Assembly: GCF_029626105.1 (NCBI RefSeq)
Contig: NZ_JARUBH010000009.1
Span: 3,782,001 to 3,846,000 of the forward strand
Reading direction: 5' to 3'
DNA from: Solwaraspora sp. WMMD792
GTDB taxonomy: Bacteria; Actinomycetota; Actinomycetes; Mycobacteriales; Micromonosporaceae
Length of the DNA stretch: 64,000 nucleotides
The notes under the pieces were generated by a model. It was not told the origin of the DNA. It saw nothing but the letters and a program-made list of their open reading frames with translations, and searched no databases. Positions within the stretch are counted from its first letter, which is position 1, and each line of letters starts with the position of its first letter. The translations under genes and the position numbers were made by a program. Shown here piece after piece: positions 25,984 through 42,533 of the stretch.

Positions 25984-26196
25984 GCCCGGCACCGGCCGCG
26001 TTCGTCGGCCTGAACCGACTCCATCGCAAGTAGCCGAGCGGTCCGTTCCGTCAGGACCGCTCGGTCCCCCCCAATTCGTCTCGCACCTCACGCCGCACAC
26101 TGCATACGTCACGCCGCACCGGACCGAACGCGACGAGTTCCGGACGTCGATGTGTGGCGCAAGACCTTTAGCGGACGGTGGTGGAAAATCCACCAG

Positions 26197-27066
26197 ATGA
26201 AGAACCGACCTGGCATCGGTGCGGACGGCGGACTGGCCGAACGCCCCGCCGCCAATTCTCCGGCCACCCGACACTCCCTCCGTGCGGAGCTTGTCGCGTT
26301 GGGTCTGCCGGCCGGCGGTATCGTCCTGGTGCACAGCTCGTTGCGGGCGATGGGTTACGTGTGCGGTGGGCCGGTCGCCGTGGTCCAGGCGCTGCTCGAC
26401 GTCCTGACGCCCGACGGAACGCTGGTGGTGCCGAGCCAGACGCCGCAGAACCGGGACCCGGCGCGGTGGGTACGGCAGGTGCCGGCAGACTGGTGGCCGA
26501 CAATCCGCGAGCACCTGCCGGCCTTTGATCCGGCGGTTCATGACTGCCGGGCCATGGGCATGGTCGCCGAGACCGTACGGACGTGGCCGGGGGCGGTCCG
26601 TAGTCAGCATCCCCAGACGTCGTTCGCGGCGGTCGGTCCCCGAGCGGCGGAGCTGATGGCCCGCCACGACCTGGACAGCGAGCTGGGCGAACGATCACCG
26701 CTCGCGGCACTCGACGCGACCGACGCACACACGTTGCTGCTCGGCGTGGGTTACGACCGGTGTACGGCGTTCCACCTTGCCGAGTACCGTCTTCCGCGGC
26801 CGCCGGAGCCGCACCGCAACGCCTGCGTGGTCCTCGGCGCGGACGGCCAACGGCAGTGGCGGACGTACGTCGGTGCCCGGCTCGACGCGGGACCGTTCAG
26901 CGAACTCGGCCGCGACTTCGAGCGGGACAGCTCGTCGGTCGCCACCGGCCCGGTGGGGCGGGCCGTCGCCCGGCTCCTACCGATCCGACCGGCGGTGGCC
27001 TACGCACGCGCCTGGCTGACGCTACGCTGTCCGGATGGCGACAGTTCCAGCGGTCCCGGGAATTGA
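26197..27066 (+). CDS. aminoglycoside N(3)-acetyltransferase family protein
   Basis: 289 aa in the chosen frame. The AAC(3) fold is recognisable by VLVHSSLRAMG near the start, GTLVVPSQTP, the central block VHDCRAMGMVAETVRTWPGAVRSQHPQTSFAAVG, then LLGVGYDRCTAFHLAE. These enzymes move acetyl from acetyl-CoA to the 3-amino group of 2-deoxystreptamine aminoglycosides; some homologues act on other amines (for example in siderophore or antibiotic pathways). The key His and Glu regions are present, so activity is plausible. The start at ATG 26197 has no clear ribosome site, and GTG 26152 is an alternative. No aminoglycoside biosynthesis genes are nearby, so self-resistance is not indicated. Confidence 0.85.
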   Translation: MKNRPGIGADGGLAERPAANSPATRHSLRAELVALGLPAGGIVLVHSSLRAMGYVCGGPVAVVQALLDVLTPDGTLVVPSQTPQNRDPARWVRQVPADWWPTIREHLPAFDPAVHDCRAMGMVAETVRTWPGAVRSQHPQTSFAAVGPRAAELMARHDLDSELGERSPLAALDATDAHTLLLGVGYDRCTAFHLAEYRLPRPPEPHRNACVVLGADGQRQWRTYVGARLDAGPFSELGRDFERDSSSVATGPVGRAVARLLPIRPAVAYARAWLTLRCPDGDSSSGPGN

Positions 27067-27280
27067 CCGCCAAGGGAGCAGGTGGCGTGCCCGAAGGTGG
27101 CGTCACTAGATCATTAGGCGCAATGATCTTCAAAAAGACTCTTCCCTGAAGAAGACCTGGGAGATATATACTCCTTACACTCGGTGTCACCCTGCGGACA
27201 TTTTGTGCGTGGTGTCGACGTCTCACTTGACACACGTACCGCCGCCCGCGACGGCGCACCGTCGACAGGCGGGAGGGCGG

Positions 27281-28609
27281 TTGTCGGATAACGATCGCGG
27301 CCCGCGGTGCTACTTCTTTCTCAGCTACGCTCGCGAAGACGAAGACGAGTGGGTTCGACGCTTCTACCATGACCTGAGCAACGAAGTCCGGGCTTATGCC
27401 GGGCTTTCACCCGGCACCGAGGTCGGCTTCCTCGACACGCAGAGCCTGGATCTGGGCGCACGATGGTCTGACCGGCTGGCCCGGGAACTCGCCCGCTGTT
27501 GCACCTTCGTCGCGTTGATCTCCCCCCGCTACGTGAAGAGTCCCTGGTGCGGTCGTGAGTGGGCGGTGTTCGCCGACCGGCTCGCCCAGCACACGTCGTC
27601 GGACGGACCACCCTCCGCACTGCTACCGGTGAACTGGCTGTCCACCCCCACCCTGCCGGCGGTGGTGGGCGACCACCAGTTGACCGACAGCAGTCTTCCG
27701 CCGCAGTACCTTGAGAAAGGACTGCGCAGACTTTCCCGGCTCAACAACTACGAGGACCCGTACCTCGACGTCGTCGAGGTACTCGCCAAGAAGATCGTGC
27801 GCAACGCGCACGCGGACGAGGTGCCACGACTCGTCACGCCGCCGGCCTTCACGCAGGTGCCGAGCGTCTTCCACCCGCCGGTGCCGGCCAATCGGCCGAC
27901 CCGGTCGCCAGCGACCTGGCCGCCGGACCCGGGTCAGCCGGTGGCGCCCGGTCCGGTGGCGCCCGGACCGGCGATGTCCGCCGGACCGGCCGACCAACGG
28001 ATCTGTTTCGTGGTCGCCGCGCCTGTCGACGACGACGTACGGGGCTTTCTGGCGTCGACCGGCCGGGACCGTCGCTACTACGGCCCGACCCCCGCCGACT
28101 GGTCCCCGTACCTGCCGGAACTCGACATGCCGCTGGTCGAGTACGCGCGGCAGGTCGCGGAGCAGGAGCAGTTCACGGCGGTCGTCACCGATCTGGCCGG
28201 GCTGCACTCCGCGGTGGGCGCCGCCCAGGCCGGCGGCTCGCCGGTGGTCCTGCTGGTCGACCTGTGGGTGGTCTACGTCGACGGGCCCCGGCGGCTCCTC
28301 AGCCAGCACAGCGGAGACACCTTCGACGATTGGCCGGTGACCGCCGTGCTGGTACCGGCCAACGGCACCGACGCACAGACCCGGTCCCGGCACAACGAGC
28401 TCATGGCGGCACTGCGCCAGGTCATCGGCGACCGGATGCGCAACTCCGGTGCGGTGATCTCCCGTACCCGGATCTCCAGCCATCAGGAGTTCCGCAGCGA
28501 CCTCCAGGCGGTCCTGGAAAAGGTCCGCAACGACGGGTTCCGAACCCGCCACCCGTACCACCGTCCGCCCGGCCGTCCCAACCCTCGACCGATCCTGCGG
28601 GGGCCCTGA
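27281..28609 (+). CDS. fxsC: TIR-like protein FxsC
   Basis: 442 aa. Residues about 10-170 are a TIR domain: CYFFLSYAREDED at strand A, GFLDTQSLDLGARW at the BB loop, and SPRYVKSPWCGREW, where the Glu after WC aligns with the NAD-hydrolase Glu of active TIR domains. A Pro-rich linker (about 210-245) leads to the FxsC C-terminal domain, starting RICFVVAAP and ending with TRISSHQEFR. FxsC marks FxSxx/FxsB peptide loci. The chosen start is TTG with GGAGGG close upstream; in-frame extension to 27203 is possible. The gene is 26 nt before fxsT on the same strand. Whether the TIR is a nucleotide hydrolase or a signalling adaptor is not known. Confidence 0.85.
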   Translation: MSDNDRGPRCYFFLSYAREDEDEWVRRFYHDLSNEVRAYAGLSPGTEVGFLDTQSLDLGARWSDRLARELARCCTFVALISPRYVKSPWCGREWAVFADRLAQHTSSDGPPSALLPVNWLSTPTLPAVVGDHQLTDSSLPPQYLEKGLRRLSRLNNYEDPYLDVVEVLAKKIVRNAHADEVPRLVTPPAFTQVPSVFHPPVPANRPTRSPATWPPDPGQPVAPGPVAPGPAMSAGPADQRICFVVAAPVDDDVRGFLASTGRDRRYYGPTPADWSPYLPELDMPLVEYARQVAEQEQFTAVVTDLAGLHSAVGAAQAGGSPVVLLVDLWVVYVDGPRRLLSQHSGDTFDDWPVTAVLVPANGTDAQTRSRHNELMAALRQVIGDRMRNSGAVISRTRISSHQEFRSDLQAVLEKVRNDGFRTRHPYHRPPGRPNPRPILRGP

Positions 28610-28635
28610 CGCGCCCACGGCTGAAGGAGCACACG

Positions 28636-31600
28636 ATGCCCGGTCCCCTGTCGTCCCGAGGTCAGATCGTCACGTTCTACTCGTTCAAGGGCGGCACCGG
28701 CCGCACCATGGCACTGGCCAACGTGGCCTGGATCCTGGCCGCCAACGGCAAGCGGGTGCTCGCCGTGGACTGGGATCTGGAGTCCCCCGGCCTGCACCAC
28801 TACTTCCGGCCGTTCCTGACCGATCCGAAGCTGCGCCACTCGCGGGGCGTCATCGACGTGATGCGCGACTTCGCCGCCCGAGTCGTCGACCCCGGTACGC
28901 CGATCGACGGCCCGAACTGGTTCCGGCACGTCGCGGACGTAGAACGTGAGGCTGTCTCACTGAACTGGCGTTTCCCCAACGGCGGAAGTCTCGACCTGCT
29001 CCCAGCCGGGGTGCAGGACCCGGCGTACTCGCAACGGGTGAGCGGCTTTGACTGGCGCAACTTCTACGACCGGCTCAACGGTGAGGCGTTCCTGCACGCG
29101 ATCCGCGACAGCATGCGGCAGCAGTACGACTGGGTACTCATCGACAGCCGCACCGGCCTCAGCGACTCGGCCGGGATCTGCACGGTCGTCATGCCCGACA
29201 CCGTGGTCGACTGCTTCACCCTCAACGACCAGAGCATCGACGGCGCGGCCGCAGTAGCGGAGGCGATCCGCAGCCAGCGCCGCGACGAAGCGGTACGGAT
29301 TCTGCCGGTGCCGATGCGGGTGGAGGCCGCCGAGCAGTTCAAGCTGGAAGCTGGCCGGGACTACGCCCGGTACCGCTTCGGATCCTATCTGGATGCCACC
29401 GACGACGAGGCCGACGCCTACTGGGGCGACGTGGAGATCCCGTACAAACCATTCTTCGCGTACGAGGAGATCCTTGCGGTCTTTGGCGAGCGCTCCCGCC
29501 AGGAGTACTCACTGCTCTCCTCGTATGAACGACTCAGTGGAATCATCACCAGTGACACGGTCCGCGAGTTCCCGGCCATCGACGAACGCGAACGCCGACG
29601 ACGACTCGCCCAGTACGAACGACAGAAGTCGCTGCTGCCCAACGACGTCGTGGTCAGCTACGCCTCGGTGAACCGGTCCTGGACCGACTGGATCGCCAAC
29701 GAGTTGGAGAGCATCGGCCTGCGGGTCACCTTGCGGGAGGTGGACCTGACCACCGGCGAGACGTCGACCGGCGACGTCGGACTCGACTCGTGGCTCGACT
29801 CGTGGCTCGACCCCACCACCCGGGTATTGGCTCTGCTGTCGCGCGACTACGTCGTCTCGGCCAACGCGGCGTCGCTCTGGCGGGCCGCCACAGCCAAGGA
29901 CCCGACCGGCGCCATGCTGGTCCCGGTGCGGCTGGACAACACCCGGCTGCCGGCCCCGTTCACCGACCGGGTCGCGGCGCTCGACCTGGTCAACAGCACC
30001 GAAGAACGGGCCCGGCAGGCGCTGCTGGGCATCTTCGACGGCGTCGCCCCGGCCGGCCGCCGGCCGGCCGGCCGGCACACTCCACGCTTTCCGGCCGGTC
30101 AGCCCCCGGTCTGGGAGGTCCCACAGCGCAACACCACCTTCACCGGCCGCAGCGACCTCCTCGAAGGACTGCGCGACCGGCTCTCCGCCGACGCCACCTC
30201 GGTCATGCCGCAGGCGCTGCACGGTCTGGGCGGCGTGGGCAAGACGCAGATCGCGCTGGAGTACGCGCACCGGTTCGCGGTGGATTACGACATCGTCTGG
30301 TGGATGTCGGCCGAACAGCCGGAACTGGTCCGCAGTTCCCTCGCCGAGCTGTCCGAACGCCTCGACCTGCCGACCGGTGGGGACCTGAGCGAGCAGGTGG
30401 ACACTGTGCTCGACGCGCTGCGCCTGGGCGAGCCGTACCAGCGCTGGCTGTTGATCTTCGACAACGCGGGCGACCCCGCCGAGCTCGAACGCTATCTGCC
30501 GCAGGGGCCGGGGCACATCGTCATCACCACCCGCGACGCCGGCTGGTCCCGTCGGGCGACCACGACCGAGGTGGGGGTGTTCAGCCGGGCGGAGAGTGTG
30601 GCGCTGCTGCGTCGCCGGGTTCCCGCGCTGACCCCGCCACAGGCGGACGCCCTGGCGGAGAAGCTGGGCGACCTGCCGCTGGTGATCGAGCAGGCCGGCG
30701 CCTGGCTGGCAGTGACCGGAATGCCGGTGCAGACCTACACCGAACTGCTGGACACCCAGCTGTCCCGGGTGCTGAGCGAAAACCCGCCGCCCAGCTACGG
30801 GGTGCCGGCCGCCGCGACCTGGCGGCTGTCCCTGGACCGGCTGCGCCGGCAGATGCCGGCCGCCGCGAAGCTGCTGGAGGTGTGCGCGTTCTTCGCGGCC
30901 GAGCCGATCCCGATCTCCTTTTTCTACAACGAGCGGTTCATCGCCGTACTACTCCCGATGGACCCGCTGCTCAGCGAGCCACTGGTCCAAGGGCGACTGG
31001 TCCAGGAGATCGGCCGGTACGCGCTGGCCCGGATCGACTCCGGGCAGTCGACGCTCCAGCTGCACCGGCTGGTGCAGGCGGTCATCCGCGACGGGCTACC
31101 TGAGGTCGAGCAGCAGGCCAACCGCCAGCACGTCCATGAGATCCTCGCCTCGATCAATCCGAAGGATCCCGACGACGTCAACCTGTGGCGCGCCTACCAG
31201 CAGCTCCATCGCCACCTCGGTGCCTCCGGCGCGCTGGAGTCGACCATACCGGCGGTACGCCAGCTGGTCATCGACATGGTCCGGTATCTCTGGAAACGTG
31301 GCGACCATCAGGCCAGCCAGCAGCTGGGTGAGAGCGCGTTGGCCGGCTGGCAGGCCCGGCCCGATGCGTCCACCGAGGACGTCACCACGTTGTCCCTGCG
31401 GCTGCACCTGGCCAACGCCACCCGCTCACTCGCCCGGTACGACGAGGCGTACGCGGCGGACACCGAGATCCGTGACGCGCTGGCCCGTCAGCTCGACTGG
31501 AACCATCCGTACACGATCATGGCGACCTCGTCGCTCGCCGCCGATCTGCGGGCCAAGGGCCGGTACGCCGAGGCCAAGGAACTCGACGAGCAGGGACTGA

Positions 31601-32580
31601 CGTTGTCCACCGAGGTACTCGGACAGGAGCACTACCGGACGACCAACGCGATGAACAACCTTGCGTTGTCGCTGGCCCTGGTCGGCGATTTCCAGTCCGC
31701 CGCCGCTCTTGACGAGCAGGCCCTGGAGATCCGCCGCCGCACGCTGGGGCACCGCCACCAGGTGACCCTCTCCTCGGTCGCCGCGCTCGGCCGCGACTAC
31801 CGGGACCTGGGTCGCTTCTCGGAGGCCCAGGAGTTGCTCGGCAGCCACCTCCCGATAGCCCAGGAGGAGCTCGGCGAGACCCATCCGCTCACGCTGCGGA
31901 TCACCCGCACCCTGGCGGTCACCCTGCGCAAGGCGGGCGAGATCGACGCCGCCTACCGGATGAGCGCCGAGTCGCTGCCCAGGCACGAACGCAAGCTCGG
32001 CGCGCTGCACCCGGACACCATCGCCTGCGCCAGCAACCTGGCGTGCGACCAGTCGGCGATCGGCGACGACCGGACCGCCCGGGAGACCGCAGAGGACGTG
32101 CTCGTCCGCTGCCGGGCCAAGGTCGGCGAAGATCATCCGTTCCTGCTGTCCGGGGAGAACAACCTTGCGATCTTCCTGCGCCGGCTGGGTGAGCTCGACG
32201 CCGCGCACCCGATCGCCGAGCGGGTGGTCGACCGGTTGTCGGCCACCCTCGGTCCGGACCATCCGTACACGCTGGCCTGCCGGATCAACTATGCGAACCA
32301 GCTGTACGACCTGCGGGAGTACCCCGCCGCGTTGCAGGTCGACCTCGACGTACGGGATCGGATCAACCGGTCACTCGGTCCGGACCATCCGGACACCCTC
32401 GCGGCCGAGAACAATCTGGCCGTCAGCCTGCGCCGGACCGGATCAACGGATCAGGCAGACGGGCTCGCCGGCAGCGTGCTGCACCGCGCCTACCGGGTAC
32501 TCGGCCTGGAACACCCCAACTCCACGGCCGTCCGCAACGGGGTCCGGCTCAACTGCGATATCGACCCTCCGCAGTTCTGA
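28636..32580 (+). CDS. fxsT: FxSxx-COOH system TPR protein FxsT, copy 1 (ATPase-TIR-NB-ARC-TPR)
   Basis: 1314 aa. Domains in order: a ParA/MinD-like ATPase (1-300) with P-loop YSFKGGTGRTMALANVAW, where Arg23 replaces the usual GKT Lys; a TIR-like domain (about 338-460) beginning NDVVVSYASVNRSW; an NB-ARC-type NTPase (about 500-760) with FTGRSDLL, P-loop LHGLGGVGKTQIALEYAHR, Walker B WLLIFDNAGDP and sensor IVITTRD; then TPR repeats (about 870-1310) of the 42-residue HPxTL type. This is an NLR-like (STAND) layout. The TIR-like part has no WCxxE motif, so it is probably not an NADase. ATG with AAGGAG at 6 nt, 26 nt after fxsC. Its 3' end overlaps the converging hydroxylase gene by 32 nt. A 12-bp tandem duplication encodes LDSWLDSW. 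Confidence 0.9.
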   Translation: MPGPLSSRGQIVTFYSFKGGTGRTMALANVAWILAANGKRVLAVDWDLESPGLHHYFRPFLTDPKLRHSRGVIDVMRDFAARVVDPGTPIDGPNWFRHVADVEREAVSLNWRFPNGGSLDLLPAGVQDPAYSQRVSGFDWRNFYDRLNGEAFLHAIRDSMRQQYDWVLIDSRTGLSDSAGICTVVMPDTVVDCFTLNDQSIDGAAAVAEAIRSQRRDEAVRILPVPMRVEAAEQFKLEAGRDYARYRFGSYLDATDDEADAYWGDVEIPYKPFFAYEEILAVFGERSRQEYSLLSSYERLSGIITSDTVREFPAIDERERRRRLAQYERQKSLLPNDVVVSYASVNRSWTDWIANELESIGLRVTLREVDLTTGETSTGDVGLDSWLDSWLDPTTRVLALLSRDYVVSANAASLWRAATAKDPTGAMLVPVRLDNTRLPAPFTDRVAALDLVNSTEERARQALLGIFDGVAPAGRRPAGRHTPRFPAGQPPVWEVPQRNTTFTGRSDLLEGLRDRLSADATSVMPQALHGLGGVGKTQIALEYAHRFAVDYDIVWWMSAEQPELVRSSLAELSERLDLPTGGDLSEQVDTVLDALRLGEPYQRWLLIFDNAGDPAELERYLPQGPGHIVITTRDAGWSRRATTTEVGVFSRAESVALLRRRVPALTPPQADALAEKLGDLPLVIEQAGAWLAVTGMPVQTYTELLDTQLSRVLSENPPPSYGVPAAATWRLSLDRLRRQMPAAAKLLEVCAFFAAEPIPISFFYNERFIAVLLPMDPLLSEPLVQGRLVQEIGRYALARIDSGQSTLQLHRLVQAVIRDGLPEVEQQANRQHVHEILASINPKDPDDVNLWRAYQQLHRHLGASGALESTIPAVRQLVIDMVRYLWKRGDHQASQQLGESALAGWQARPDASTEDVTTLSLRLHLANATRSLARYDEAYAADTEIRDALARQLDWNHPYTIMATSSLAADLRAKGRYAEAKELDEQGLTLSTEVLGQEHYRTTNAMNNLALSLALVGDFQSAAALDEQALEIRRRTLGHRHQVTLSSVAALGRDYRDLGRFSEAQELLGSHLPIAQEELGETHPLTLRITRTLAVTLRKAGEIDAAYRMSAESLPRHERKLGALHPDTIACASNLACDQSAIGDDRTARETAEDVLVRCRAKVGEDHPFLLSGENNLAIFLRRLGELDAAHPIAERVVDRLSATLGPDHPYTLACRINYANQLYDLREYPAALQVDLDVRDRINRSLGPDHPDTLAAENNLAVSLRRTGSTDQADGLAGSVLHRAYRVLGLEHPNSTAVRNGVRLNCDIDPPQF

Positions 32581-34330
32581 CCGGGCCTGCCGCCGACAGC
32601 CAGCGGACGAGCGCCGACGGCCGGACGTCAGCCGCGCCGGCCCGCCGGAGTTCGCCCAGCAACGCGCGGACGAGCTCCGGTCGGGCGGCGGGCGCGTCGT
32701 CGGCCGACGACTGGGCGGCGGGCGTCAGCTCCAACGCCAGCATCGCCCAGGCCTCCGCGTCGTCCGGATCGTCGAACAGCCGACGGTCCAGCACACTGAC
32801 CCGGTCCGCGGTCCGGTCGTCCCGGATGCCGGGCGCCGGCGGAGCCGCGACCACCGACGCCCGGCCGGTGATCGTCTCCTGCCGGATCCGGCGCACCAGG
32901 CTCGCGGCCATCGCGGCGCCGCCGGCCGGCCTCGCGACGGCGAGCTCGACCTCGACGGCCTGCGTCGACGCGTCGAGCCCGGCGCGGAAGGCGGCGGCCA
33001 GCGGCGAGAGCTGCTCCGCCGGCACCTGGAGGTTGCGGAGCCGCCACTGGACGTCGGCGACCGTCATACAGGCCGACACCCCGGCCTGCACCTCGGCGTC
33101 GGCGGCACCGGGCCAGCCGTGCAGGGTGTCGGCGAGCCGTTCGACGAAGGTCTCCCCGAGAGGGGTCAGCGCCGACGAACCGGCGAACGCGTCGATCGCC
33201 CGCCGGCACTGGTCCCGCCAGAGCACGTACTCGAAATCGGCCCCCCGCCGCGCCGGACCGGTCAGCCGCGAGCGACGAGCCCGCCAGAAGTCAGCGACCG
33301 CGACGTGCGCGTAGATGCCCTGCAGCAGTGCGCTGGCCGGGCGGGGATCGGTACGCCAGGGAGCGTGGAAGACGTCCGGGCAGTCGGGGTCGGTCAGCGC
33401 GAACAGATCAAGTACGGCGCTCAGCTTGGTGTGCTGCGTCTCGTGCACCATCAACAGTGCCAGCTCCGCCGCGTCGGCTGGCACCGAGATCGCCACCGCG
33501 CCGTAGGTCCGCTGGTGCGAGGCGCTGACCGAGCCGCCGGGCGACCCGGCCGGCACCAGCGAGCGGAGGCAGCCGGCCACCGTCGGGGCGTACTGGACAA
33601 GGTCCGTGCCGATCAACGTCCACGCCTGCGGCAGGTGCGCCCGCAGCCGGCTCAGCGGCCGACCGCGCAGCCGGTCGGTGACCGGTAGCCCGAAGCAGCT
33701 CCGGTGCGGGTCGAGGTCGTCGATCTCGATAGCGAGATCACCGGCCGGACCGCGACAGTGGACCACCCGGTACGCCTGCCGGGCGTCACCGGTACGCAGC
33801 ACGGTGCCGTCGTACCGGAGAACCCGGTGCCGGGGGCCGAGGCCGCCGACCCGACCGAGCCCCGGAATCAGCACCGTCTCGACGCCGACGGGCAGGCTCA
33901 GCTCGAACGCGGTCCCGGTGGCCATCGCGGCGGCGGCGGCGAGCCCGGTCAGATACTCCGGACCGGGTGGCCCGGGCGGGCTCCGGTCCGGCTGCGGATC
34001 GCCGTCCCGCCGGCTGCCGGGCACCGGCTGCCGGCCATGCAGCAGCCGATGCGCCCACAGGTCGACGAACGGACGGGAGAGCACCGTCGCGGCCGCCGTC
34101 GACGACTGCGTCACAGCGGTGTCCAGCACGGCCCACGCCTGCTGCCCGGTCTCACCGAGTCTGGTACGCAGCCGCAGCTCCCGCAGCAGCAGCAGCCGCT
34201 TGCTCAACTGTGCGCGGCCCAGCGCGGACAACGTCCCGGTGTCGCCACCGCCAGCGGCGAGCGCATCGAACTGAGCCCGGGTGAGGCCGTGCCGCCGGCC
34301 GGGGTCGGTCGGCGGCGCACCCGTGGTCAC
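32549..34330 (-). CDS. HExxH-type peptide beta-hydroxylase of the FxsB system
   Basis: 593 aa. The metal motif is MVHETQHTK with H296-E297 and H300, the hallmark of the HExxH domain found fused to, or next to, FxsB maturases; the family is now described as alpha-ketoglutarate-dependent peptide beta-hydroxylases. The N-terminal 230 residues are helical, with a Pro-rich break near 115-125. The C-terminal third is Ala/Arg-rich helical. Its GTG start overlaps the stop of the radical SAM gene (GTGA), which fixes the start and implies translational coupling. In many related loci this domain is part of FxsB; here it is a separate protein. It presumably hydroxylates the beta carbon of a residue in the cyclised precursor tail. 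Confidence 0.85.
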   Translation of the reverse strand: MTTGAPPTDPGRRHGLTRAQFDALAAGGGDTGTLSALGRAQLSKRLLLLRELRLRTRLGETGQQAWAVLDTAVTQSSTAAATVLSRPFVDLWAHRLLHGRQPVPGSRRDGDPQPDRSPPGPPGPEYLTGLAAAAAMATGTAFELSLPVGVETVLIPGLGRVGGLGPRHRVLRYDGTVLRTGDARQAYRVVHCRGPAGDLAIEIDDLDPHRSCFGLPVTDRLRGRPLSRLRAHLPQAWTLIGTDLVQYAPTVAGCLRSLVPAGSPGGSVSASHQRTYGAVAISVPADAAELALLMVHETQHTKLSAVLDLFALTDPDCPDVFHAPWRTDPRPASALLQGIYAHVAVADFWRARRSRLTGPARRGADFEYVLWRDQCRRAIDAFAGSSALTPLGETFVERLADTLHGWPGAADAEVQAGVSACMTVADVQWRLRNLQVPAEQLSPLAAAFRAGLDASTQAVEVELAVARPAGGAAMAASLVRRIRQETITGRASVVAAPPAPGIRDDRTADRVSVLDRRLFDDPDDAEAWAMLALELTPAAQSSADDAPAARPELVRALLGELRRAGAADVRPSALVRWLSAAGPVRTAEGRYRS

Positions 34331-35547
34331 CGGAGAGCTCCGACGTCGTGCTGGCGGTCCCCAGCGGCCGCCAGTCGCCGCAGATCGGTCCGCATCCGAC
34401 CGTGTACGTGACCGATCAGCCGGGCCAGATCCGGACAGTAGACCGACGGGTTGCCGAACCCGGTCGAACCGTCGTACCGGTGTGCGTAGTGCCCGCCGCC
34501 GCAGACGTTCACCAGGCTGCAACGTCGGCAGGTCGTACCGAGCGCGGCCAGGCCGATCTGGCGTTGACGCAGCCCGGGAAGCAGCAGCAGATCGTCGAAT
34601 CCGGAACGCTCGACGTGCAGCCCGGTTGCGGTCGCGCCAGCTGTGGTGGTCTTCAGCGCGTCGCCGTGTTCGATGCTGCCGTCGGTCTCCACCACGACGA
34701 AGTCGACGGGTGCCAACCCGACCGATTCGCTCCGGCCGGGACCGCCGAGCAGCAGCGACATGATCACACTGAACAGACGGATGTCCGTCTCCCGCTGTGG
34801 CGCGTCGTACCACCGGTCGAACACGGCGATCAGCCAGTCCGCGTACGGTGTGTGCGTGGTTCCCGGGCCACGACCGGCCGGCGGGGAACTCCAGTTCCCG
34901 TGCGGCAGCAGCAGGTCCAGCCGCGGCGGGGCGAACCGCAGCAGGCCGGCGTACACCTCGATCGGATCGTTGCGCAGGTTGATCGTACATAGTAGACCGC
35001 CGAACAGGTGCCGGAACCGGTCCTGCCGCAGCCGGTCCAGCCCTGCCGACACGTCGGTGTAGCTGCCTCCGCCATGTGGGAAACGCCGGTGCAGATCGTT
35101 GGCGTGACGGTCGCCGTCCAAGCTGACGCCAACCCGCACCGAGAGCCGACTAAACGTCTCCAGAAAGGCCTCGTCGAGAAGGACTCCGTTTGTTTGCACC
35201 GTGAAAGTGACCACGATGTCCGGTGACATCCGCCGCCGGACAGCGGCCACCGCGTATTCAAAGAAATCGACGCCGGCCAGCAGCGGCTCGCCACCGTGAA
35301 AGGTGACCGTCACCCGTGACAGCCGCCACCGGCGGGCATGTTCGGCGAGACGGTCGGCGGCAGCGTCGATCACCGACGGTGACATGATCAAAGGCTGTCG
35401 ACGCCAAGACTGATCGACATGCTGGTAGACATAGCAGTAGCTGCACGAGAGGTTGCAGCGACTGTGCACCTTCAGTAACATGTGCCTTAGCGGCGTCAGC
35501 CCAGCGGGCGGCGAGGTGGCCGGATCAGATATAGTTGTTGAATGCAC
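34327..35547 (-). CDS. fxsB: FxsB-type cyclophane-forming radical SAM/SPASM peptide maturase
   Basis: 406 aa. The radical SAM cluster motif is C31-N-L-S-C35-S-Y-C38 within KVHSRCNLSCSYCYVYQH, followed by FHGGEPLL, QTNGVLL and VSLDGD, all standard SPASM-maturase blocks. The C-terminal auxiliary-cluster region has CRRCSLVNVCGGGHYAHRY and a later VYCPDL. FxsB enzymes link an aromatic side chain to the beta carbon of the residue two positions on, making a three-residue cyclophane. GTG at 35547 is chosen because GGAGG lies 6 nt upstream (35554-35558). The start is inside the last codons of the precursor gene (23-nt overlap), and the end overlaps the hydroxylase start. The order precursor, maturase, hydroxylase forms one operon. 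Confidence 0.9.
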   Translation of the reverse strand: MHSTTISDPATSPPAGLTPLRHMLLKVHSRCNLSCSYCYVYQHVDQSWRRQPLIMSPSVIDAAADRLAEHARRWRLSRVTVTFHGGEPLLAGVDFFEYAVAAVRRRMSPDIVVTFTVQTNGVLLDEAFLETFSRLSVRVGVSLDGDRHANDLHRRFPHGGGSYTDVSAGLDRLRQDRFRHLFGGLLCTINLRNDPIEVYAGLLRFAPPRLDLLLPHGNWSSPPAGRGPGTTHTPYADWLIAVFDRWYDAPQRETDIRLFSVIMSLLLGGPGRSESVGLAPVDFVVVETDGSIEHGDALKTTTAGATATGLHVERSGFDDLLLLPGLRQRQIGLAALGTTCRRCSLVNVCGGGHYAHRYDGSTGFGNPSVYCPDLARLIGHVHGRMRTDLRRLAAAGDRQHDVGALR

Positions 35548-35722
35548 TGACGGCCTCCGCAAGGCGGTCAGCGGCTGTGGAATGGTCCGCCGATTCAACC
35601 TCGTAGCGATTGCGGATGGCATGGCCGAGTGCATTGTCGCCCGGTGACATCAGGGTCGACCACGGCAAGTCGGTGACATCTACGATAGCGCCTTCAATGC
35701 CGCGCTCCGGTGAAGCCGTCAT
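35525..35722 (-). CDS. FxSxx-COOH-type RiPP precursor peptide ending FNNYI
   Basis: 65 aa beginning MTASPERGIEGAIVDVTDLP. The leader carries the FxsA-type pattern IVDVTDLPWSTL, and the peptide ends SAFNNYI at the stop codon. In canonical precursors the tail is FxSxx; here it is F-N-N-Y-I, so Asn takes the Ser position. In three-residue cyclophane RiPPs the third residue is often Asn, so crosslinking of Phe to the beta carbon of the second Asn is plausible, with later beta-hydroxylation by the HExxH enzyme. ATG 35722 has AGAGG 5 nt upstream; an upstream ATG at 35746 lacks a ribosome site. It sits 162 nt behind the second fxsT and overlaps fxsB by 23 nt. Confidence 0.85.
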   Translation of the reverse strand: MTASPERGIEGAIVDVTDLPWSTLMSPGDNALGHAIRNRYEVESADHSTAADRLAEAVSAFNNYI

Positions 35723-35884
35723 GGAGGCCTCTTGTCTCAAAGTCATCTCAAATTTGTTTCGGACAGGTTAGACAGCAGGCGCGACTACCCGACGCCGTGC
35801 CCAACGTGGATAACCGGAACAGTGTACGACACGTCACAGGCAGAGCCACGGTAAACCCCGACGAAAGTCGAACGCGGCGTGGGA

Positions 35885-38800
35885 TCAGGTCGCTGCCGGC
35901 TCGATGTCGCTGCTGATCCGCGTCCCGTCGTGCAACGCAGCCACATATGGGTGTCCCGGGCCGAGCCGCAGCGTGGCCGCCCGCAGCGCATCCGCGTACA
36001 GCTGGGCGGCGCTCTCCGGCAGGCCCGCCGCCACCCGGGTCGTCGCCAGATTCGCCGCCGCCGCGACCACCGCCGGACATTCCTCGCCCAACCTTGCTCG
36101 CAGTCCGGCGTAGCAGCGCTCGTCCACCTCCCGGGCGCGGTCGTGGTCTCCTACGGCGAACAACACGTTGGCGTGGTTGGCGGCGCACAGCAGGGCGTAC
36201 GGGTGCTCCTCGCCGAGGACCTCGGCGAACCGGCCCGCAGTCTCCGCCAGCAGCGGTCCGGCCTGGGTGAAACCTCCATCCCGCACCAGAAAAATCCCGA
36301 GGTTGTTCGCAGCGGCCAACGAATGGGGGTGGTCGACGCCCATCAACTCGCCGTACCGGTCGCACAGCCTGCCCGCCGCGACGGCGGCGTCGGAATGCTC
36401 GCCGCGGGCCGACCGTACGCAGGCCAGCTCCAGCTCGGCGGCGAGAGTGTTCGGATGATCCGCCCCGAGCTGCTGCTCGTACGACCGGCGGACCACCTCG
36501 CTGAGCTCCCGGGACCGGTCCAGGTGGCCCAACCGGCGCAGCGTCACCGCGAGGTTCTTCGTCGCGGCCAGCGTGTGGCCGTGCAGGTCGCCGAACTCTC
36601 GACGGCAGGTGGACACCACAGTCTCCAGCGTCTCCCGGGAACGGACCAGGTCACCGGTCTCCCGCAGTACCCTCCCGTGGTTGATCCGGTAGATGACGGT
36701 CCACTGGTTGGTCTGCCCGAGCAGGCGGCCGGCAATCTCCACCACCTCCTCGGCCAGCAGGAGCGAGCTGCGGAAGTCACCGGTCAGCAGGTACGACAAC
36801 GACAGGTTGTTGATCGCCTTGTGGGTCTCATCGTGATCGCGCCCCATGGCGGCCTGCCACTTGGCGACCGCGTCCTCGTCGAGGTCGCGGGCCTGCCGGT
36901 ATCGACCCAGTCCGCGCAGGTCCGCCGCGACGCCCCGGAGACTCACCAACGAGTACGGGTGCACCCCGCCGAACACCCGCTCCATCCGTTCGCGTACATC
37001 GATGTCGATGTCCAGCGCCGCCTGGTAGTCCCCGAGCTGTCGCAGCACGTTCGCCAGTTCGGCACGCAGTCGCAGGACCGAAGCGTCGTCGGCGCCCGAG
37101 GTCACGGTCCAGCCGTGCAACGCGCGGACCGCCAGGTCGTGACTGCTGGTGAGGTCGCCCCGGTAGCGCAACGCCCGCACCATGTCGATGACGAGGTTGT
37201 GCACGTCGCGGTCGTCGGACTCCAGCGCGCCAGTGGGCTCCAGATGGGGCAGCATCCGCCGGTAGCTGTCCCAGTTCAGCCGGTCGTCGGGAACACCACG
37301 GCGCTCGGCGGCCAGGATCGAATGCACCTGCCGCCGACGTTCCTGCCGTACCTCCGGATCGAGGTCGTTGCGGATCACCTGCTGGACCAGGCGATGCATC
37401 CGCAGTGCCCGCACCGTCGGATCCAGGCGGGCCAGACCGAACCGGGTGATCTCGCGGACCAGTGCGCCGTACAGCAGCGGGTCCCGCATCGCCGGATCGT
37501 CCTGGCTCAGCACCTGTAGCATCCCCGGACTGGACAGCAGGTCCGTCGGGATCGGCTCGGGCGCGAGGCAGGCACAGAGCTCCACCAGGTGCGCCGCGGC
37601 TGGGTTCGACATCCGTAGCCGCTGCTGCGAGATGCGCCAGATCTCCGCCGCCGGATGCGGGTAGTCCGACGCGGGCGGCGTCTCCAGGATCCGGGGCAGG
37701 TGTTCGTCCAGAATCGCCAGGTAGCGGTCCGGGCTCATCGCGGTCGCCGCCAGCCAGCCCGCCGCCTGCTCCACCGCCAGCGGCAGATCCCCCAGCTTGT
37801 CGGCGATCACGTCGGCGGAGGCCCGGTCGATACTCGGCACCCACCGGGCGATGAGGTCGATACTCTCCGTACGGCTGAAAGTGTTGACCTCGATGGTCCA
37901 CCCGCTGCCCGACCAGTCACCGCCGCGCGTGGTGACGATGACGTCGCCCTGCCCGGCCGGCACGTACGGCAGCAGCTGTTTCGGATCCTCGATGTTGTCG
38001 AACACCACCGCCCACCGGCGGGACGGCCGGCCGAGGCGCAACGCTTCCAGGACCGCCCCGACCTGACCGGCCACGTCCGCCGCCGACAGATCCAGCGCGT
38101 TCGCCAGATCGGCCAACGCGGACGGCACCAGTCTCGGCTGCTCGGCCGAGATCCACCAGACGATGTCGTAGTCGGCGGCGAATCGGTGCAGGTACTCGGT
38201 GACGATTTGCGTCTTGCCCACCCCGCCGATCCCCTGCAACACGGTCGGACCGTTCATCGCGGTGCTGGCGTTGAGGCGTTCGCGCAACTGCTCGAGGATC
38301 GCGTCGCGGCCGGTGAACGTGGCGTTGCGCGACGGTGCCCGCCAGACCCGCGCCGGCTCGAACGGGAACCGGGGACGCGGAATGGCCCCGAGCATCGCCT
38401 CGCTGGCCGGTGCCACGTCGCGCAGGTCGAACTGCGCCAGCAGGGCGTCGCGGGAGTGCTGCCGGGAGACGTTGAACATGTCGACCGGTTCCTGAGAGTC
38501 GTACGGCTGCGGTAGCCGGAAGCCGTCCAGCCGGATCGGCACCAGGAACGGCCCTGAGCCGGACGGTTCACGCCGCTGGGCCGCCGACCAGAACGCATGC
38601 GCGTGCGGGGTCCGGACCGACTCCTGCGACAGCAGCAGCAATGCCCGGTCCGAGTCCCCCACCACCGTCACCGCGTCGTCAGCGGTGATGTCCTGCAACA
38701 CGCCCCGGTGTCCCACCGTGCGCAGTTGCAGGGCGATCCACTCGGCCCAGATCCGGTCACGTGGCAGGTAGCCGATCAGCACGGTCCCCTGCTCGACCGG

Positions 38801-39796
38801 ATGAGGTCGCTCGAACTCACCGAGCCAGCTGCGTCGGACCGCCTCGGTCGGCCCTTCGTACCGACACGGCTCCCCGATCAGCTCTCCGGCGAGCCGCTGG
38901 TACGCGGCCAACAGGGTGTTCTCCAGGTGCGGGCGGTCACCCAGGGTCGCCAACGTCTCCTCGTAGGCGTAGGAAACCTTGTACGGGATCTCGATCGCTC
39001 CCCAGTACAGGGTGTCGTCGGAGTAGCCGAGGTCGGCCACCACGTCGCTGAACCGCTGCTGCGCGTTTGCCCGCCACCGGTCGAGCTTGGCCGCTTCGCC
39101 GTCCTCCACCCGGGTCGGCACCGGAAACACCCGCACCGGCTCGCCGTACTGGTTGCGCCGTTCGCGGATGCTGTTGGCGGCCGCCACCGCCCCGTCGAGA
39201 TTCTGGTGATTGAAGGTGAAGCAGTTGACCACCACGTCGGGTATCTCCAACGTGCACATGGCCGCGTTGGTGCCGAGCCCGGTGCTGCTGTCGACCAGGG
39301 TGACGTCGTACTCCGCCCGCATGCCCGCCGCCCAGGACCAGAGGAAGGACCCGGCGTCGAACTGGTCCCAGAACTCGGACCAGTCGAACGCGGTCAGCCG
39401 GACCGCGTACTCCGGGTCCTGCTGTCCGCAGGGGATGAAGTCGATCGACCCGCCGTTGGGAAATTCGTAGCGCTCCAACGGAATCGCGTGCTGCTGAACC
39501 CTGGCGACCCGGGCCAGTCTGGCCGCTGACAGCGGCCCGTACTGGTCGACCTCCTGGCGGTAGCGCGCCATGGCGTCGATCACTCCCGGCGACCGACGCA
39601 GCTTACGGTCGGCCAGGAACGGCCGGAAGTACAGGTGCAGGCCGGGCGAGTCGAAGTCACAGTCGACAGTCAGCACCCGGCGGCCGGTACTGGCGAGGAT
39701 CCAGGCGACGTTGGCCAGCGCCATCGTCCGGCCGACACCGCCCTTGTACGAGTAGAAGGTAAAAATCTGACCGTTTCGCGGGGTGGCTGATTCCAT
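35885..39796 (-). CDS. fxsT: FxSxx-COOH system TPR protein FxsT, copy 2 (ATPase-TIR-NB-ARC-TPR)
   Basis: 1303 aa, same architecture as copy 1 but clearly divergent in sequence. ParA-like P-loop YSYKGGVGRTMALANVAW (again Arg23 in place of Lys), TIR-like domain (about 355-460, starting VLIGYLPRDRIWAEW), NB-ARC with NATFTGRDAI, P-loop LQGIGGVGKTQIVTEY and Walker B WAVVFDNIEDP, then TPR repeats of the HPNTLAAELELAC form. The TIR-like part lacks the catalytic Glu block (HAFWSAAQRRE). ATG with GAGG 11 nt upstream. It lies upstream of, and on the same strand as, the precursor-fxsB-hydroxylase operon, while copy 1 lies beyond it in the opposite orientation, so the two enclose the operon. Paralogues of this kind may recognise different ligands or form a pair. 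Confidence 0.9.
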   Translation of the reverse strand: MESATPRNGQIFTFYSYKGGVGRTMALANVAWILASTGRRVLTVDCDFDSPGLHLYFRPFLADRKLRRSPGVIDAMARYRQEVDQYGPLSAARLARVARVQQHAIPLERYEFPNGGSIDFIPCGQQDPEYAVRLTAFDWSEFWDQFDAGSFLWSWAAGMRAEYDVTLVDSSTGLGTNAAMCTLEIPDVVVNCFTFNHQNLDGAVAAANSIRERRNQYGEPVRVFPVPTRVEDGEAAKLDRWRANAQQRFSDVVADLGYSDDTLYWGAIEIPYKVSYAYEETLATLGDRPHLENTLLAAYQRLAGELIGEPCRYEGPTEAVRRSWLGEFERPHPVEQGTVLIGYLPRDRIWAEWIALQLRTVGHRGVLQDITADDAVTVVGDSDRALLLLSQESVRTPHAHAFWSAAQRREPSGSGPFLVPIRLDGFRLPQPYDSQEPVDMFNVSRQHSRDALLAQFDLRDVAPASEAMLGAIPRPRFPFEPARVWRAPSRNATFTGRDAILEQLRERLNASTAMNGPTVLQGIGGVGKTQIVTEYLHRFAADYDIVWWISAEQPRLVPSALADLANALDLSAADVAGQVGAVLEALRLGRPSRRWAVVFDNIEDPKQLLPYVPAGQGDVIVTTRGGDWSGSGWTIEVNTFSRTESIDLIARWVPSIDRASADVIADKLGDLPLAVEQAAGWLAATAMSPDRYLAILDEHLPRILETPPASDYPHPAAEIWRISQQRLRMSNPAAAHLVELCACLAPEPIPTDLLSSPGMLQVLSQDDPAMRDPLLYGALVREITRFGLARLDPTVRALRMHRLVQQVIRNDLDPEVRQERRRQVHSILAAERRGVPDDRLNWDSYRRMLPHLEPTGALESDDRDVHNLVIDMVRALRYRGDLTSSHDLAVRALHGWTVTSGADDASVLRLRAELANVLRQLGDYQAALDIDIDVRERMERVFGGVHPYSLVSLRGVAADLRGLGRYRQARDLDEDAVAKWQAAMGRDHDETHKAINNLSLSYLLTGDFRSSLLLAEEVVEIAGRLLGQTNQWTVIYRINHGRVLRETGDLVRSRETLETVVSTCRREFGDLHGHTLAATKNLAVTLRRLGHLDRSRELSEVVRRSYEQQLGADHPNTLAAELELACVRSARGEHSDAAVAAGRLCDRYGELMGVDHPHSLAAANNLGIFLVRDGGFTQAGPLLAETAGRFAEVLGEEHPYALLCAANHANVLFAVGDHDRAREVDERCYAGLRARLGEECPAVVAAAANLATTRVAAGLPESAAQLYADALRAATLRLGPGHPYVAALHDGTRISSDIEPAAT

Positions 39797-39931
39797 CGCT
39801 CGGCAACCTCGTCCCTGCCCCGTCGGGCCCGCCCCCGGACGGCAGCAGGCCGATCGACCAACGGCACTGTCTGTAACCAGAATATGAAGCTGCGTCCACG
39901 ATCTGAAGCGGTCCGATGCCAACGGCCGTAC

Positions 39932-40021: not shown

Positions 40022-40594
40022 CTACCGCCGGGCCGCGCCCGGCGGCCAGATCACCCGCACCGTGATTCCCCGCCGGTTGGCCTCCGCGACCATCTCGGCG
40101 GTGCCACCGACGCCGCCCTCGGTCCCGTCCCAGACCGCGAAAAGAAGATCGCAGCGGTCGAGAACGAGCCGGCCCGCCTCGGCATAGGTCCGACTACCGG
40201 AAACCGTTCCGGCGTACGAGACCGATCGCGCGAGGGCGAGCAGATCGTCGAACGCCGGCCGTCGCACCGGTCGGATACACCTGGACCGGTAGTCCGGCGC
40301 GGGCAACACCACATCGAAGGTCGCGCCGGCAGCGACGATCTCCTCGGCGAACAACTGGTCGGCGCCTTCCGCGAGGCAGGTCAGCCCGTGGATCGGTCGG
40401 CACCCGGCCTGTCGGTGAACCTCACGCAACGCCGCTCGCAGTGCCAGCCGGACCAGCCGGTCGGACCCGGCGGCCAGCCCGATGTGACCGGAGACTCCGA
40501 TCCGCAGTTCACGATGCCCCGACGCGGCGCCGGGTCCGGTGCCGCCGGCGGCGCCGGAGGTGTCAGCAGACCTGGTCGCTGTACCGCCCCTCAC
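40022..40594 (-). CDS. SLOG/LOG-like Rossmann nucleotide-binding protein
   Basis: 190 aa. After a polar 28-residue start, the fold runs LRIGVSGHIG, then GLTCLAEGADQLFAEE, FDVVLPAPDYRSR, and CDLLFAVWDGTEGGVGGTAEMVAEANRRG, which is the GxGxxxE-like nucleotide site of the SLOG/DprA/LOG superfamily. SLOG proteins sense or process nucleotides and are common in bacterial conflict and signalling loci. GTG 40594 overlaps the stop of the TrkA-N/RyR gene (GTGA), so the two are coupled. It lies directly upstream of the second fxsT on the same strand. The ligand is unknown. Confidence 0.78.
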   Translation of the reverse strand: MRGGTATRSADTSGAAGGTGPGAASGHRELRIGVSGHIGLAAGSDRLVRLALRAALREVHRQAGCRPIHGLTCLAEGADQLFAEEIVAAGATFDVVLPAPDYRSRCIRPVRRPAFDDLLALARSVSYAGTVSGSRTYAEAGRLVLDRCDLLFAVWDGTEGGVGGTAEMVAEANRRGITVRVIWPPGAARR

Positions 40595-42417
40595 CGCCGA
40601 TGCTCCCGGGTCGCTGACCACCGCGTGACCGGCTCCGGCGCGCCGGTACCGACCCGCACGATCTCCAGCCCGACATCGGCCAGCACACCGGGGATCTGCC
40701 GCATCTCGTCGCGGTTCTTCTCCTTGACCTGCTCCGGAAGCTCGCGCCAGGGACGCAGGTCCGGATGGGTACGGGCGGCTCTGTCCCGCCGCGGGCCGTG
40801 CACCCAGCCGGTCGACCTGCGTTCCCGGGACCACCGTTGGTGTTCCAGCACGGCGAGCCGTTCGATCTGCTCCCGGGTCAACCGCACCGCCACGTTCGTC
40901 CGGGTCCGTGGCGCCAACGCCAGCCCGAGGACCCGCAACTTCCGACCGATGTCGGCGGCCTGAGCACGGTTCGTCCGACGCAGATCCTCCGGTAGCGAGG
41001 CCCAGGGCAGCAACGCCGGATCGGCGACCGACCCGACCGCCCCGACCCGCGACGCCAGCAGGTACCGGTCGTGGATCGACCGGCCGAGCCGCTCGACCAG
41101 GTCGTCGCCGATCCGATCGGGGTCGCTGGCCGCGTCGACCGTCGGGTAGCAGCGCACCGTGCCGGAAATCGCGTCGAGCAGGCCCGAGTGGCCGTCGCCG
41201 TCGGCGAACGCGCCGGCCAGGCCGGCGAGCCGGGTGACCGGTACGGTGACCGATCCCGGCCCGCCCCGCCACAACGACGGTGTGGTCAACGCGATCTTCA
41301 ACGCCTGCTCCTCGTCGTCGAGGCAGAGCAGGACCCGGTCGTGCGGGACGCGGAAGGCCGGGCCGGGCAGCAACGCGTCCGGCTCGCGCTCGTAGCACAC
41401 GACGTCGCAGACGCCGCCGAGGAACGGGTACCGGTGCACCAGATCGTCGACCACCGACCGGGCGTCCGCAGCAATGAGATCGACACGGAGCCGGCCGGCG
41501 GTGTCCGGCTGGTGGATCCGCCAGTGCCGGGCCGCTTCGACCAGCACCGCGCGGCCGAACGACGACATCCCGATCACCAGCAGCCGACTGAGCCGTACGG
41601 TCGGCAACGGGTCCTGCCGGAACAACCAGCGGGCGGCGAGCTCGTCGACGTTGAAGAAGTCGAGCCGCAGATCGACGCCGGCCGAATGGCTCAACCGGCG
41701 GGCCTGCATCGCCAGACAGAGTTCCGGATCGTGGAGTTGGGCGTAGACCCGCATGCCGCCGTTGTGTTCGTCGCGCAGCATCCCGGCGGTGGTGGCGGCG
41801 AGGATGTTGTCCGTGCTGTCATCGGTGCAGGCGTACACCAGCGCGGCGCGTCCTACGCCGGCCGCCCGCAGCACTTCGGCGGCGGTGGGGTCCCCGGGTA
41901 CGGAGTACCACCGACGACGGGACGGGACCGGCGTGCCCGACGGCAGGCCCACCACGACCACCTTCCTGCCGGCGGCGTGCAACCGGGCCGCGAGGTTGCG
42001 GGCCATGGCCGAGTCACCGCACACCACGACGTGCCCGCTGGCCCGCCGGGCACGCAACCGGTGCAGTTCACCGGTCAGCAGTACCCGGGCAGTCTCGACG
42101 AGAGCGAACACGGTCGCCGCCGGCGCGGTGAACCGGGCGACCTGCAACTGCCAGGGCAGGTCGGCCCGGTCCGCGAGCTGGTCTGCATCGAGGACGAAGA
42201 GCTGCAACGTGTAGTAGAGAACGTCGACCGGCGTGGTCGTGCCGCCGCGCTCGCCCACGAGCAGCTCGGCGTAACCGACGAATCCCAGGATCGCCGACAC
42301 CCCCGCCAGCAGCACGAAAGTGATGCGGAGCAGGGTGATTGTCGTTCTGTTCCGGTCCTGGTCCAGGGAAGCCTCCCACCGTCCGGTCTGACGGTCGATG
42401 TAACGAGTATCACCCAT
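40591..42417 (-). CDS. membrane TrkA-N protein with C-terminal RyR domain
   Basis: 608 aa. Two hydrophobic segments near the N terminus (TTITLLRITFVLLAGVSAIL and, after a possible pore-like loop VLYYTLQLFVLD, FTAPAATVFALVETARVLL) resemble a simple ion-channel module. Two Rossmann TrkA-N-like units follow, the first with GHVVVCGDSAMARNLAARL, the second with LLVIGMSSFGRAVL. The last 75 residues are a RyR domain: LEHQRWSRERRSTGWVHG, then HPDLRPWRELPEQVKEKNRDE. Prokaryotic RyR domains have been described with SLOG and TIR proteins in nucleotide-centred conflict networks. It probably reacts to a nucleotide or NAD-derived signal. ATG 42417 is the likely start but lacks a clear ribosome site; TTG/GTG starts up to 42510 are possible. 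Coupled to the SLOG-like gene by GTGA. Confidence 0.8.
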   Translation of the reverse strand: MGDTRYIDRQTGRWEASLDQDRNRTTITLLRITFVLLAGVSAILGFVGYAELLVGERGGTTTPVDVLYYTLQLFVLDADQLADRADLPWQLQVARFTAPAATVFALVETARVLLTGELHRLRARRASGHVVVCGDSAMARNLAARLHAAGRKVVVVGLPSGTPVPSRRRWYSVPGDPTAAEVLRAAGVGRAALVYACTDDSTDNILAATTAGMLRDEHNGGMRVYAQLHDPELCLAMQARRLSHSAGVDLRLDFFNVDELAARWLFRQDPLPTVRLSRLLVIGMSSFGRAVLVEAARHWRIHQPDTAGRLRVDLIAADARSVVDDLVHRYPFLGGVCDVVCYEREPDALLPGPAFRVPHDRVLLCLDDEEQALKIALTTPSLWRGGPGSVTVPVTRLAGLAGAFADGDGHSGLLDAISGTVRCYPTVDAASDPDRIGDDLVERLGRSIHDRYLLASRVGAVGSVADPALLPWASLPEDLRRTNRAQAADIGRKLRVLGLALAPRTRTNVAVRLTREQIERLAVLEHQRWSRERRSTGWVHGPRRDRAARTHPDLRPWRELPEQVKEKNRDEMRQIPGVLADVGLEIVRVGTGAPEPVTRWSATREHRR

Positions 42418-42533
42418 AGACGCCAGTCGGCTACCCAACGCTTGACCATCACATTTCATGGTGAAGTAGGAAAATTCGCCTTGGTGCCACGGGTCCGTCA
42501 CCGCGCACACCGACCGGATAAGATTCCTTCGCC

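What the first reader, a model, noticed from the sequence alone, without database searches (positions are those of the whole stretch)
35525..35722. RiPP precursor with a non-canonical FxN tail in an FxsB locus
The 65-residue peptide ends FNNYI instead of FxSxx. Asn replaces the Ser at the third position, which is where three-residue cyclophane maturases attach the aromatic ring. The sequence shows the tail, the overlap with fxsB and a leader with the DLPW pattern; the crosslink between Phe and the second Asn, and a possible extra modification of Tyr, are inferred. The peptide may be a new sub-type of cyclophane peptide.
Basis: partly seen in the sequence, partly recalled or inferred. Interest (0 to 1): 0.9.

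Follow-up and report, generated by a model that had tools for sequence, protein, structure and literature searches.

The report
Asn-type FxsA cyclophane peptide precursor
The small gene looks like a real precursor of a ring-closed peptide, but its unusual Asn tail is not a one-off: it is the common tail in one branch of these actinobacterial systems, so it is a little-noticed variant of a known kind.

Summary
In detail: a 65-codon minus-strand ORF (35525-35722) ends FNNYI and overlaps the likely fxsB start (GTG 35547) by 23 nt. It is homologous to other FxsB-adjacent precursors. A profile from 69 others ranks it first of 367 small window ORFs (E 2.8e-11; next 0.89). A core-masked profile of 38 FxS precursors still finds it (E 2e-6).

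The tail is not singular. Of 110 distinct FxsBs, 31 had an FxN precursor upstream, 38 FxS, 1 FxA; in 40 none was recognised. The window's FxsB lies in a supported clade of 29: 26 FxN, 3 FxS. Six Actinomadura/Actinocorallia FxsBs form a second FxN clade. The first clade's signature is F-x-N-[F/Y]: 14 Phe and 9 Tyr of 26, against Tyr-specific chemistry. Two of nine FxN relatives scanned pass NCBI's FxSxx-COOH cut-off; Phe-Asn cyclophanes are known from XncB and OscB (review).

So: a new variant of a known kind, in a seven-gene block that a same-genus genome lacks. Unexpected: an AAC(3)-like acetyltransferase gene recurs in these loci. No chemistry was tested.

The parts
35525..35722 (-). FxsA-type precursor peptide, 65 aa, tail F61-N62-N63-Y64-I65
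34327..35547 (-). fxsB, radical SAM/SPASM cyclophane maturase; GTG start inferred (ORF open from ATG 35634)
   Evidence: TIGR04269 464 bits; CxxxCxxC and further Cys invariant in an alignment of 17 (window and 16 relatives); best PDB sequence match ChlB 9gm3, E 6.7e-85
32549..34330 (-). HExxH protein (aKG-HExxH peptide beta-hydroxylase type); inferred GTG start in a 4-nt overlap with the fxsB stop; HETQH motif present
   Evidence: TIGR04267 158 bits, cut-off 40; start candidates; translation
35885..39922 (-). TPR1: KGGVGR/MinD-like + TIR_2 + NB-ARC + TPR protein, same strand as and upstream of the precursor gene
   Evidence: NF040586 890 bits, NF047398 123 bits; Pfam
28264..32580 (+). TPR2: second FxSxx-system TPR protein, convergent with the HExxH gene (mechanical ORF; the true start is probably near 28.6 kb, inferred)
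   Evidence: NF040586 1008 bits; conserved in L095 and L096
27203..28609 (+). FxsC, TIR-like protein
   Evidence: NF040588 166 bits and TIGR04276 112 bits, both above cut-off
26152..27066 (+). AAC(3)/PF02522-type N-acetyltransferase, recurrent in these loci
   Evidence: PF02522 285 bits; NF033082 180 bits, below its cut-off of 270
26075..39476 (.). block absent from same-genus genome G114 (39596-39801 is missing there too; a relic of TPR1, 39477-39595, remains)

Best explanation
The ORF encodes an FxsA-type RiPP precursor. FxsB recognises the leader (IVDVTDLPWSTLM...ALGHAIR), abstracts H from the beta-carbon of Asn63 and joins it to the ring of Phe61, giving a three-residue Phe-x-Asn cyclophane near the C-terminus. 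The HExxH protein probably hydroxylates a beta-carbon afterwards or takes part in processing. The product most likely acts within the cassette as a signal or toxin linked to the TIR/NB-ARC/TPR proteins. Shown: the ORF, its homology, its linkage, the clade-wide FxN tail. Inferred: leader recognition, crosslink, regiochemistry, hydroxylation, biological role.
For: Leave-window-out profile E 2.8e-11, first of 367 ORFs; core-masked FxS profile E 2e-6; FxsB 464 bits, ChlB its best solved relative by sequence; 26 of 29 FxsBs in its clade have FxN precursors just upstream; C4(Phe)-Cbeta(Asn) by XncB/OscB and C4(Phe)-Cbeta(Ser) by MscB (review PMC11002830, passages); ChlH beta-hydroxylates Asp and His in a way that depends on a preinstalled cyclophane (PMC12636437, passages); proposal of a peptide toxin or signal coupled to AP-ATPase/TPR proteins (PMC7159879, section 24).
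Against: The peptide itself misses NCBI's FxSxx model altogether. The FxS profile does not recognise every FxN precursor: 18 of 31 at E<=0.01 (16 of 31 with cores masked), so some FxN leaders have drifted far. No mass data. HExxH lies within 15 kb of only 14 of 29 clade FxsBs, so its part is uncertain. Several relatives carry residues after the motif (FANFIGTQ..., FGNFIGGHC...), so a strict C-terminal position is not general.
Confidence: 0.72

Rival explanations
1. FxsB of this clade does something else at FxN: Asn is linked through its side-chain nitrogen, or FxsB installs a change that is not a cyclophane.
For: Asn stands at this place in 26 of 29 clade members, so the enzyme may have changed with it.
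Against: FxS precursors recur inside the clade (L021 beside L020, SH-aLRT 83; L038 and L041), so closely related enzymes go with both residues; Cbeta(Asn) products are known in sister families.
Confidence: 0.15
2. The ORF is translated but the locus is decaying, or the peptide mainly serves translational coupling of fxsB through the overlap.
For: Overlap with fxsB; G114 lacks the block and keeps a relic; 5 of 7 genus genomes show no FxsB at E<=1e-30.
Against: Leader and core match those of far relatives; the FxsB and HExxH frames are open and score over their cut-offs; relatives keep the tail at other distances from fxsB.
Confidence: 0.08
3. The 65-aa frame is a chance ORF.
For: No Pfam or NCBIfam hit.
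Against: Profile ranks and E-values.
Confidence: 0.02

Closest known systems
FxSxx-COOH cyclophane-containing RiPP peptide (TIGR04268) with FxsB (TIGR04269)
   Same: leader pattern, size, place before fxsB, Phe at the first core position
   Different: third core residue Asn, not Ser; the window peptide does not reach the model, whereas two of nine FxN relatives scanned pass its cut-off and, of the 10 FxN rows in A2, three including the window gave no hit at all
Triceptides made by XncB, OscB, MscB (review PMC11002830, passages seen)
   Same: aromatic-x-X motif with a SPASM radical SAM maturase; Phe-Asn links known
   Different: an FxsB-family enzyme with Phe-x-Asn in an actinobacterial TIR/NB-ARC/TPR cassette; chemistry untested here
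ChlB/ChlH (radical SAM and aKG-HExxH; PDB 9gm3)
   Same: homologous maturase (E 6.7e-85) together with a HExxH protein
   Different: separate genes here, where the ChlB-type protein is described as fused; one FxN core
Standalone actinobacterial peptide-processing systems with AP-ATPase and MinD-like domain (PMC7159879)
   Same: gene content: peptide, radical SAM/SPASM, zincin-like protein, MinD-like + TIR + AP-ATPase-like + TPR
   Different: section 24 names four peptide types (FxSxx, RxD, acidic, FtsH-associated) and no FxN type; in the passages seen the one acetyltransferase shown is GCN5-like, not AAC(3)

Membership tests
FxSxx-COOH precursor (TIGR04268) | score at or above 28 bits | tested here: not met
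   no hit at E<=10; of 9 FxN relatives scanned 2 met it (32.9 and 29.6 bits), the one FxS control scored 48.9
FxSxx-COOH precursor (TIGR04268) | C-terminal F-x-S-x-x | tested here: not met
   tail is FNNYI
FxSxx-COOH precursor (TIGR04268) | homology of the leader to FxsB-adjacent precursors | tested here: met
FxsB maturase (TIGR04269) | score above 370 bits | tested here: met
   464.4 bits
Triceptide | aromatic-x-X core beside a SPASM radical SAM enzyme | tested here: met
Triceptide | aryl carbon to Cbeta (i, i+2) crosslink | not testable with these tools
   needs MS and NMR
aKG-HExxH beta-hydroxylase (TIGR04267) | score above 40 bits and HExxH motif | tested here: met
   158.1 bits; HETQH in the translation
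FxsC (NF040588/TIGR04276) | both domain models above cut-off | tested here: met
   166.3 (cut-off 130) and 111.6 bits (cut-off 55)
AAC(3) aminoglycoside acetyltransferase (NF033082) | score above 270 bits | tested here: not met
   179.9 bits; the broader PF02522 is met

The most novel reading that the evidence does not exclude
FxN[F/Y] defines a separate cyclophane subfamily whose product is a Phe-Asn ring peptide, N-acetylated by the cassette's own AAC(3)-like enzyme, and sensed inside the cell by the TIR/NB-ARC/TPR proteins as an alarm or self-marker.
Probability: 0.12. Interest if true: 0.7.

Novelty: new variant of a known kind. Interest (0 to 1): 0.42.

Why it matters
It shows that 'FxSxx' is too narrow a name: Asn (and rarely Ala) stands at the crosslink position in sizeable parts of the FxsB family, so models keyed to FxSxx miss precursors such as this one. 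Sister enzymes that go with Asn and with Ser substrates give natural pairs for asking what fixes residue choice. The recurrent acetyltransferase gene offers a testable tailoring or protection step.

Tried and rejected
Rejected: (1) the tail as a singular oddity. (2) Tyr-specific modification, since Phe and Tyr alternate there. (4) Chance ORF.

Weak points: tail classes were assigned by eye from scripted lists; 40 of 110 and 91 of 180 FxsBs got no class and are not in the N/S counts; unclear candidates (for example L067, L069, L155, L172) were left unclassed. L062, L081 and L089 were classed although their ORFs end 154-225 nt before fxsB, and the HESSI tail of L163 was counted as S. The 110 come from the window's taxonomic family, chosen from the top of the cut hit list mostly by similarity, so the N:S ratio is no census. 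The 80 contigs are the best 80 of 580; 10 were already held, 70 were added. Trees are quick IQ-TREE searches (SH-aLRT only). PF02522 count: one search covered 20 genomes (19 chosen for FxsB, plus G114); 30 full-length matches lie in 16 of the 19, two short fragments were dropped; the FxsB list used may be incomplete because cut its list. PADLOC gave only weak look-alikes (viperin models for FxsB, PDC-M28B for the TPR proteins).

Literature: the listings (the last with 'FxNxx', 'FxN motif', 'Phe-Xaa-Asn') show no paper on FxN precursors of FxsB among the titles listed; only PMC7159879, PMC11002830, PMC12636437 and PMC12281569 were opened, in passages or one section. Sugiyama 2022, Nguyen 2020, Phan 2024 and Morishita 2024 are not held and may describe FxN. 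That IPR026335 (MscB) is the FxsB family is recalled.

Full report
What is there. On the minus strand, ATG 35722 to TGA 35525 encodes 65 aa (MTASPERGIEGAIVDVTDLPWSTLM...AEAVSAFNNYI). The likely fxsB start, GTG 35547, has GCGGAGG upstream and gives a 23-nt overlap; the HExxH gene has a GTG at 34330 in a 4-nt overlap with the fxsB stop. The neighbour is a true FxsB (464 bits, cut-off 370) and the third gene an aKG-HExxH type (158 bits, cut-off 40). FxsC, two FxSxx-system TPR proteins and an AAC(3)-like acetyltransferase complete the set.

Is the ORF real. A profile from 69 FxsB-adjacent precursors of other genomes, window left out, ranks it first among 367 window ORFs of 40-150 aa (E 2.8e-11; next 0.89). 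A profile from the 38 FxS precursors alone gives E 3.3e-7, and with cores cut off E 2e-6, with no other window ORF at E<=1. So the leader, not only the tail, marks it as FxsA-like. The same FxS profiles recognise 18 (16 masked) of the 31 FxN precursors at E<=0.01 and 24 (23) at E<=1; the rest, mostly from tandem loci, were classed by place and tail alone. NCBI's own FxSxx-COOH model does not see the window peptide.

Is the FxN tail special. FxsB relatives were sought in 300 genomes drawn from the same taxonomic family: 196 of 300 have one at E<=1e-30. From the loci fetched, 110 distinct FxsBs were read; upstream precursors were FxN in 31, FxS in 38, FxA in 1, and not recognised in 40. On the FxsB tree the window lies in a clade of 29 (SH-aLRT 98): 26 FxN and 3 FxS, from seven genus codes. 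Adding 70 of the 80 named contigs (10 were already held) gives 180 FxsBs (37 N, 50 S, 2 A, 91 unclassed); the same 29-row clade stays (95), and six FxsBs of Actinomadura and Actinocorallia with FDN cores form a second FxN clade (98). The N label needs 8 changes on the tree against a mean of 34 in 500 shuffles. FxN is thus a clade-wide trait with further separate cases (L045, L062, L086, L110, L114); the direction of change is not known.

Anatomy of the core. In the 26 clade members the residue after Asn is Phe 14, Tyr 9, Ala 2, Arg 1; in the 38 FxS precursors it is Ala 12, Ser 10, Phe 9, Val 3, Tyr 2, His 1, Arg 1. So the clade signature is F-x-N-[F/Y]. Tyr is interchangeable with Phe, which speaks against an essential phenol chemistry. 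Some members have residues beyond the motif. W-x-S (L083, L123), H-x-S (L163) and F-x-A (L046, L184) tails also occur.

Mechanism. The review seen in passages (PMC11002830) lists C4(Phe)-Cbeta(Asn) bonds by XncB and OscB and C4(Phe)-Cbeta(Ser) by MscB. FxsB here is close to ChlB in sequence (PDB 9gm3, E 6.7e-85). The simplest reading is a Phe61-Asn63 cyclophane. PMC12636437 (passages) reports that the ChlH activity on Asp and His depends on a preinstalled cyclophane, so hydroxylation after ring closure is plausible; but a HExxH gene is within 15 kb in just 14 of 29 clade members. FxS precursors nested in the clade (L021 beside L020) suggest that these maturases can go with both residues.

Setting. 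G079 (same genus) and G219 keep the order TPR1, precursor, fxsB, HExxH, TPR2 with FxsC and the acetyltransferase. Same-genus G114 lacks window 26075-39476, with aligned flanks about 94% identical on both sides, lacks 39596-39801 too, and keeps a 119-bp piece of the TPR1 gene (39477-39595, 92%), which suggests loss from its lineage; its alignment with the window has other gaps outside the block as well. G093 also lacks the block. Of 7 genus genomes 2 have FxsB. The gene set fits the standalone peptide-processing systems of PMC7159879 (section 24 read), where the peptide is proposed to be a toxin or signal.

Unexpected partner. PF02522 genes: of 30 full-length matches in the 19 genomes chosen for FxsB (16 of 19 have any; G114, also searched, gave a fragment only), 17 lie within 15 kb of a listed FxsB and 5 more within 3 kb of a HExxH gene; 8 lie near neither. 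Of the 29 clade FxsBs, 22 have one within 15 kb. In a wider 121-genome sample 61 have a PF02522 match; linkage was not counted there. The genomes were chosen for FxsB, so this is linkage, not frequency.

Verdict. Observation confirmed; interpretation partly supported; new variant of a known kind.

Noticed in passing
window 26152-27066 (+): AAC(3)/PF02522-type acetyltransferase gene recurrent near FxsB and HExxH genes, in L098, L099, L101 and L105 just upstream of a precursor-fxsB pair; possibly a peptide acetyltransferase or self-protection.
   Followed up: partly
window 26075-39476 against G114: The block is absent in a same-genus genome, which keeps a 119-bp relic of the TPR1 gene.
   Followed up: partly
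L097, L098, L099, L101, L105: Two precursor-FxsB pairs about 7-8 kb apart around a TPR gene, each pair with a different FxN core; an FxsC gene follows one fxsB (checked in L097 and L101) and no HExxH match lies within 15 kb.
   Followed up: partly
L163, L046, L184, L083, L123: Further core variants next to FxsB: HESSI, FNAAL, FEAVI, WNSAV, WNSYLP.
   Followed up: no
L170 (Nocardia carnea contig): Upstream ORF with three GNFSSFIE repeats, suggesting a multi-core precursor.
   Followed up: no
window 40591-42510 (-): TrkA_N plus RyR domain protein beside the cassette; G114 keeps it in two matched pieces without the cassette.
   Followed up: no
G000:C9:2543508-2552440: Two further HExxH-family genes about 8 kb apart elsewhere in the window's genome, and a third at 5373727.
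   Followed up: no
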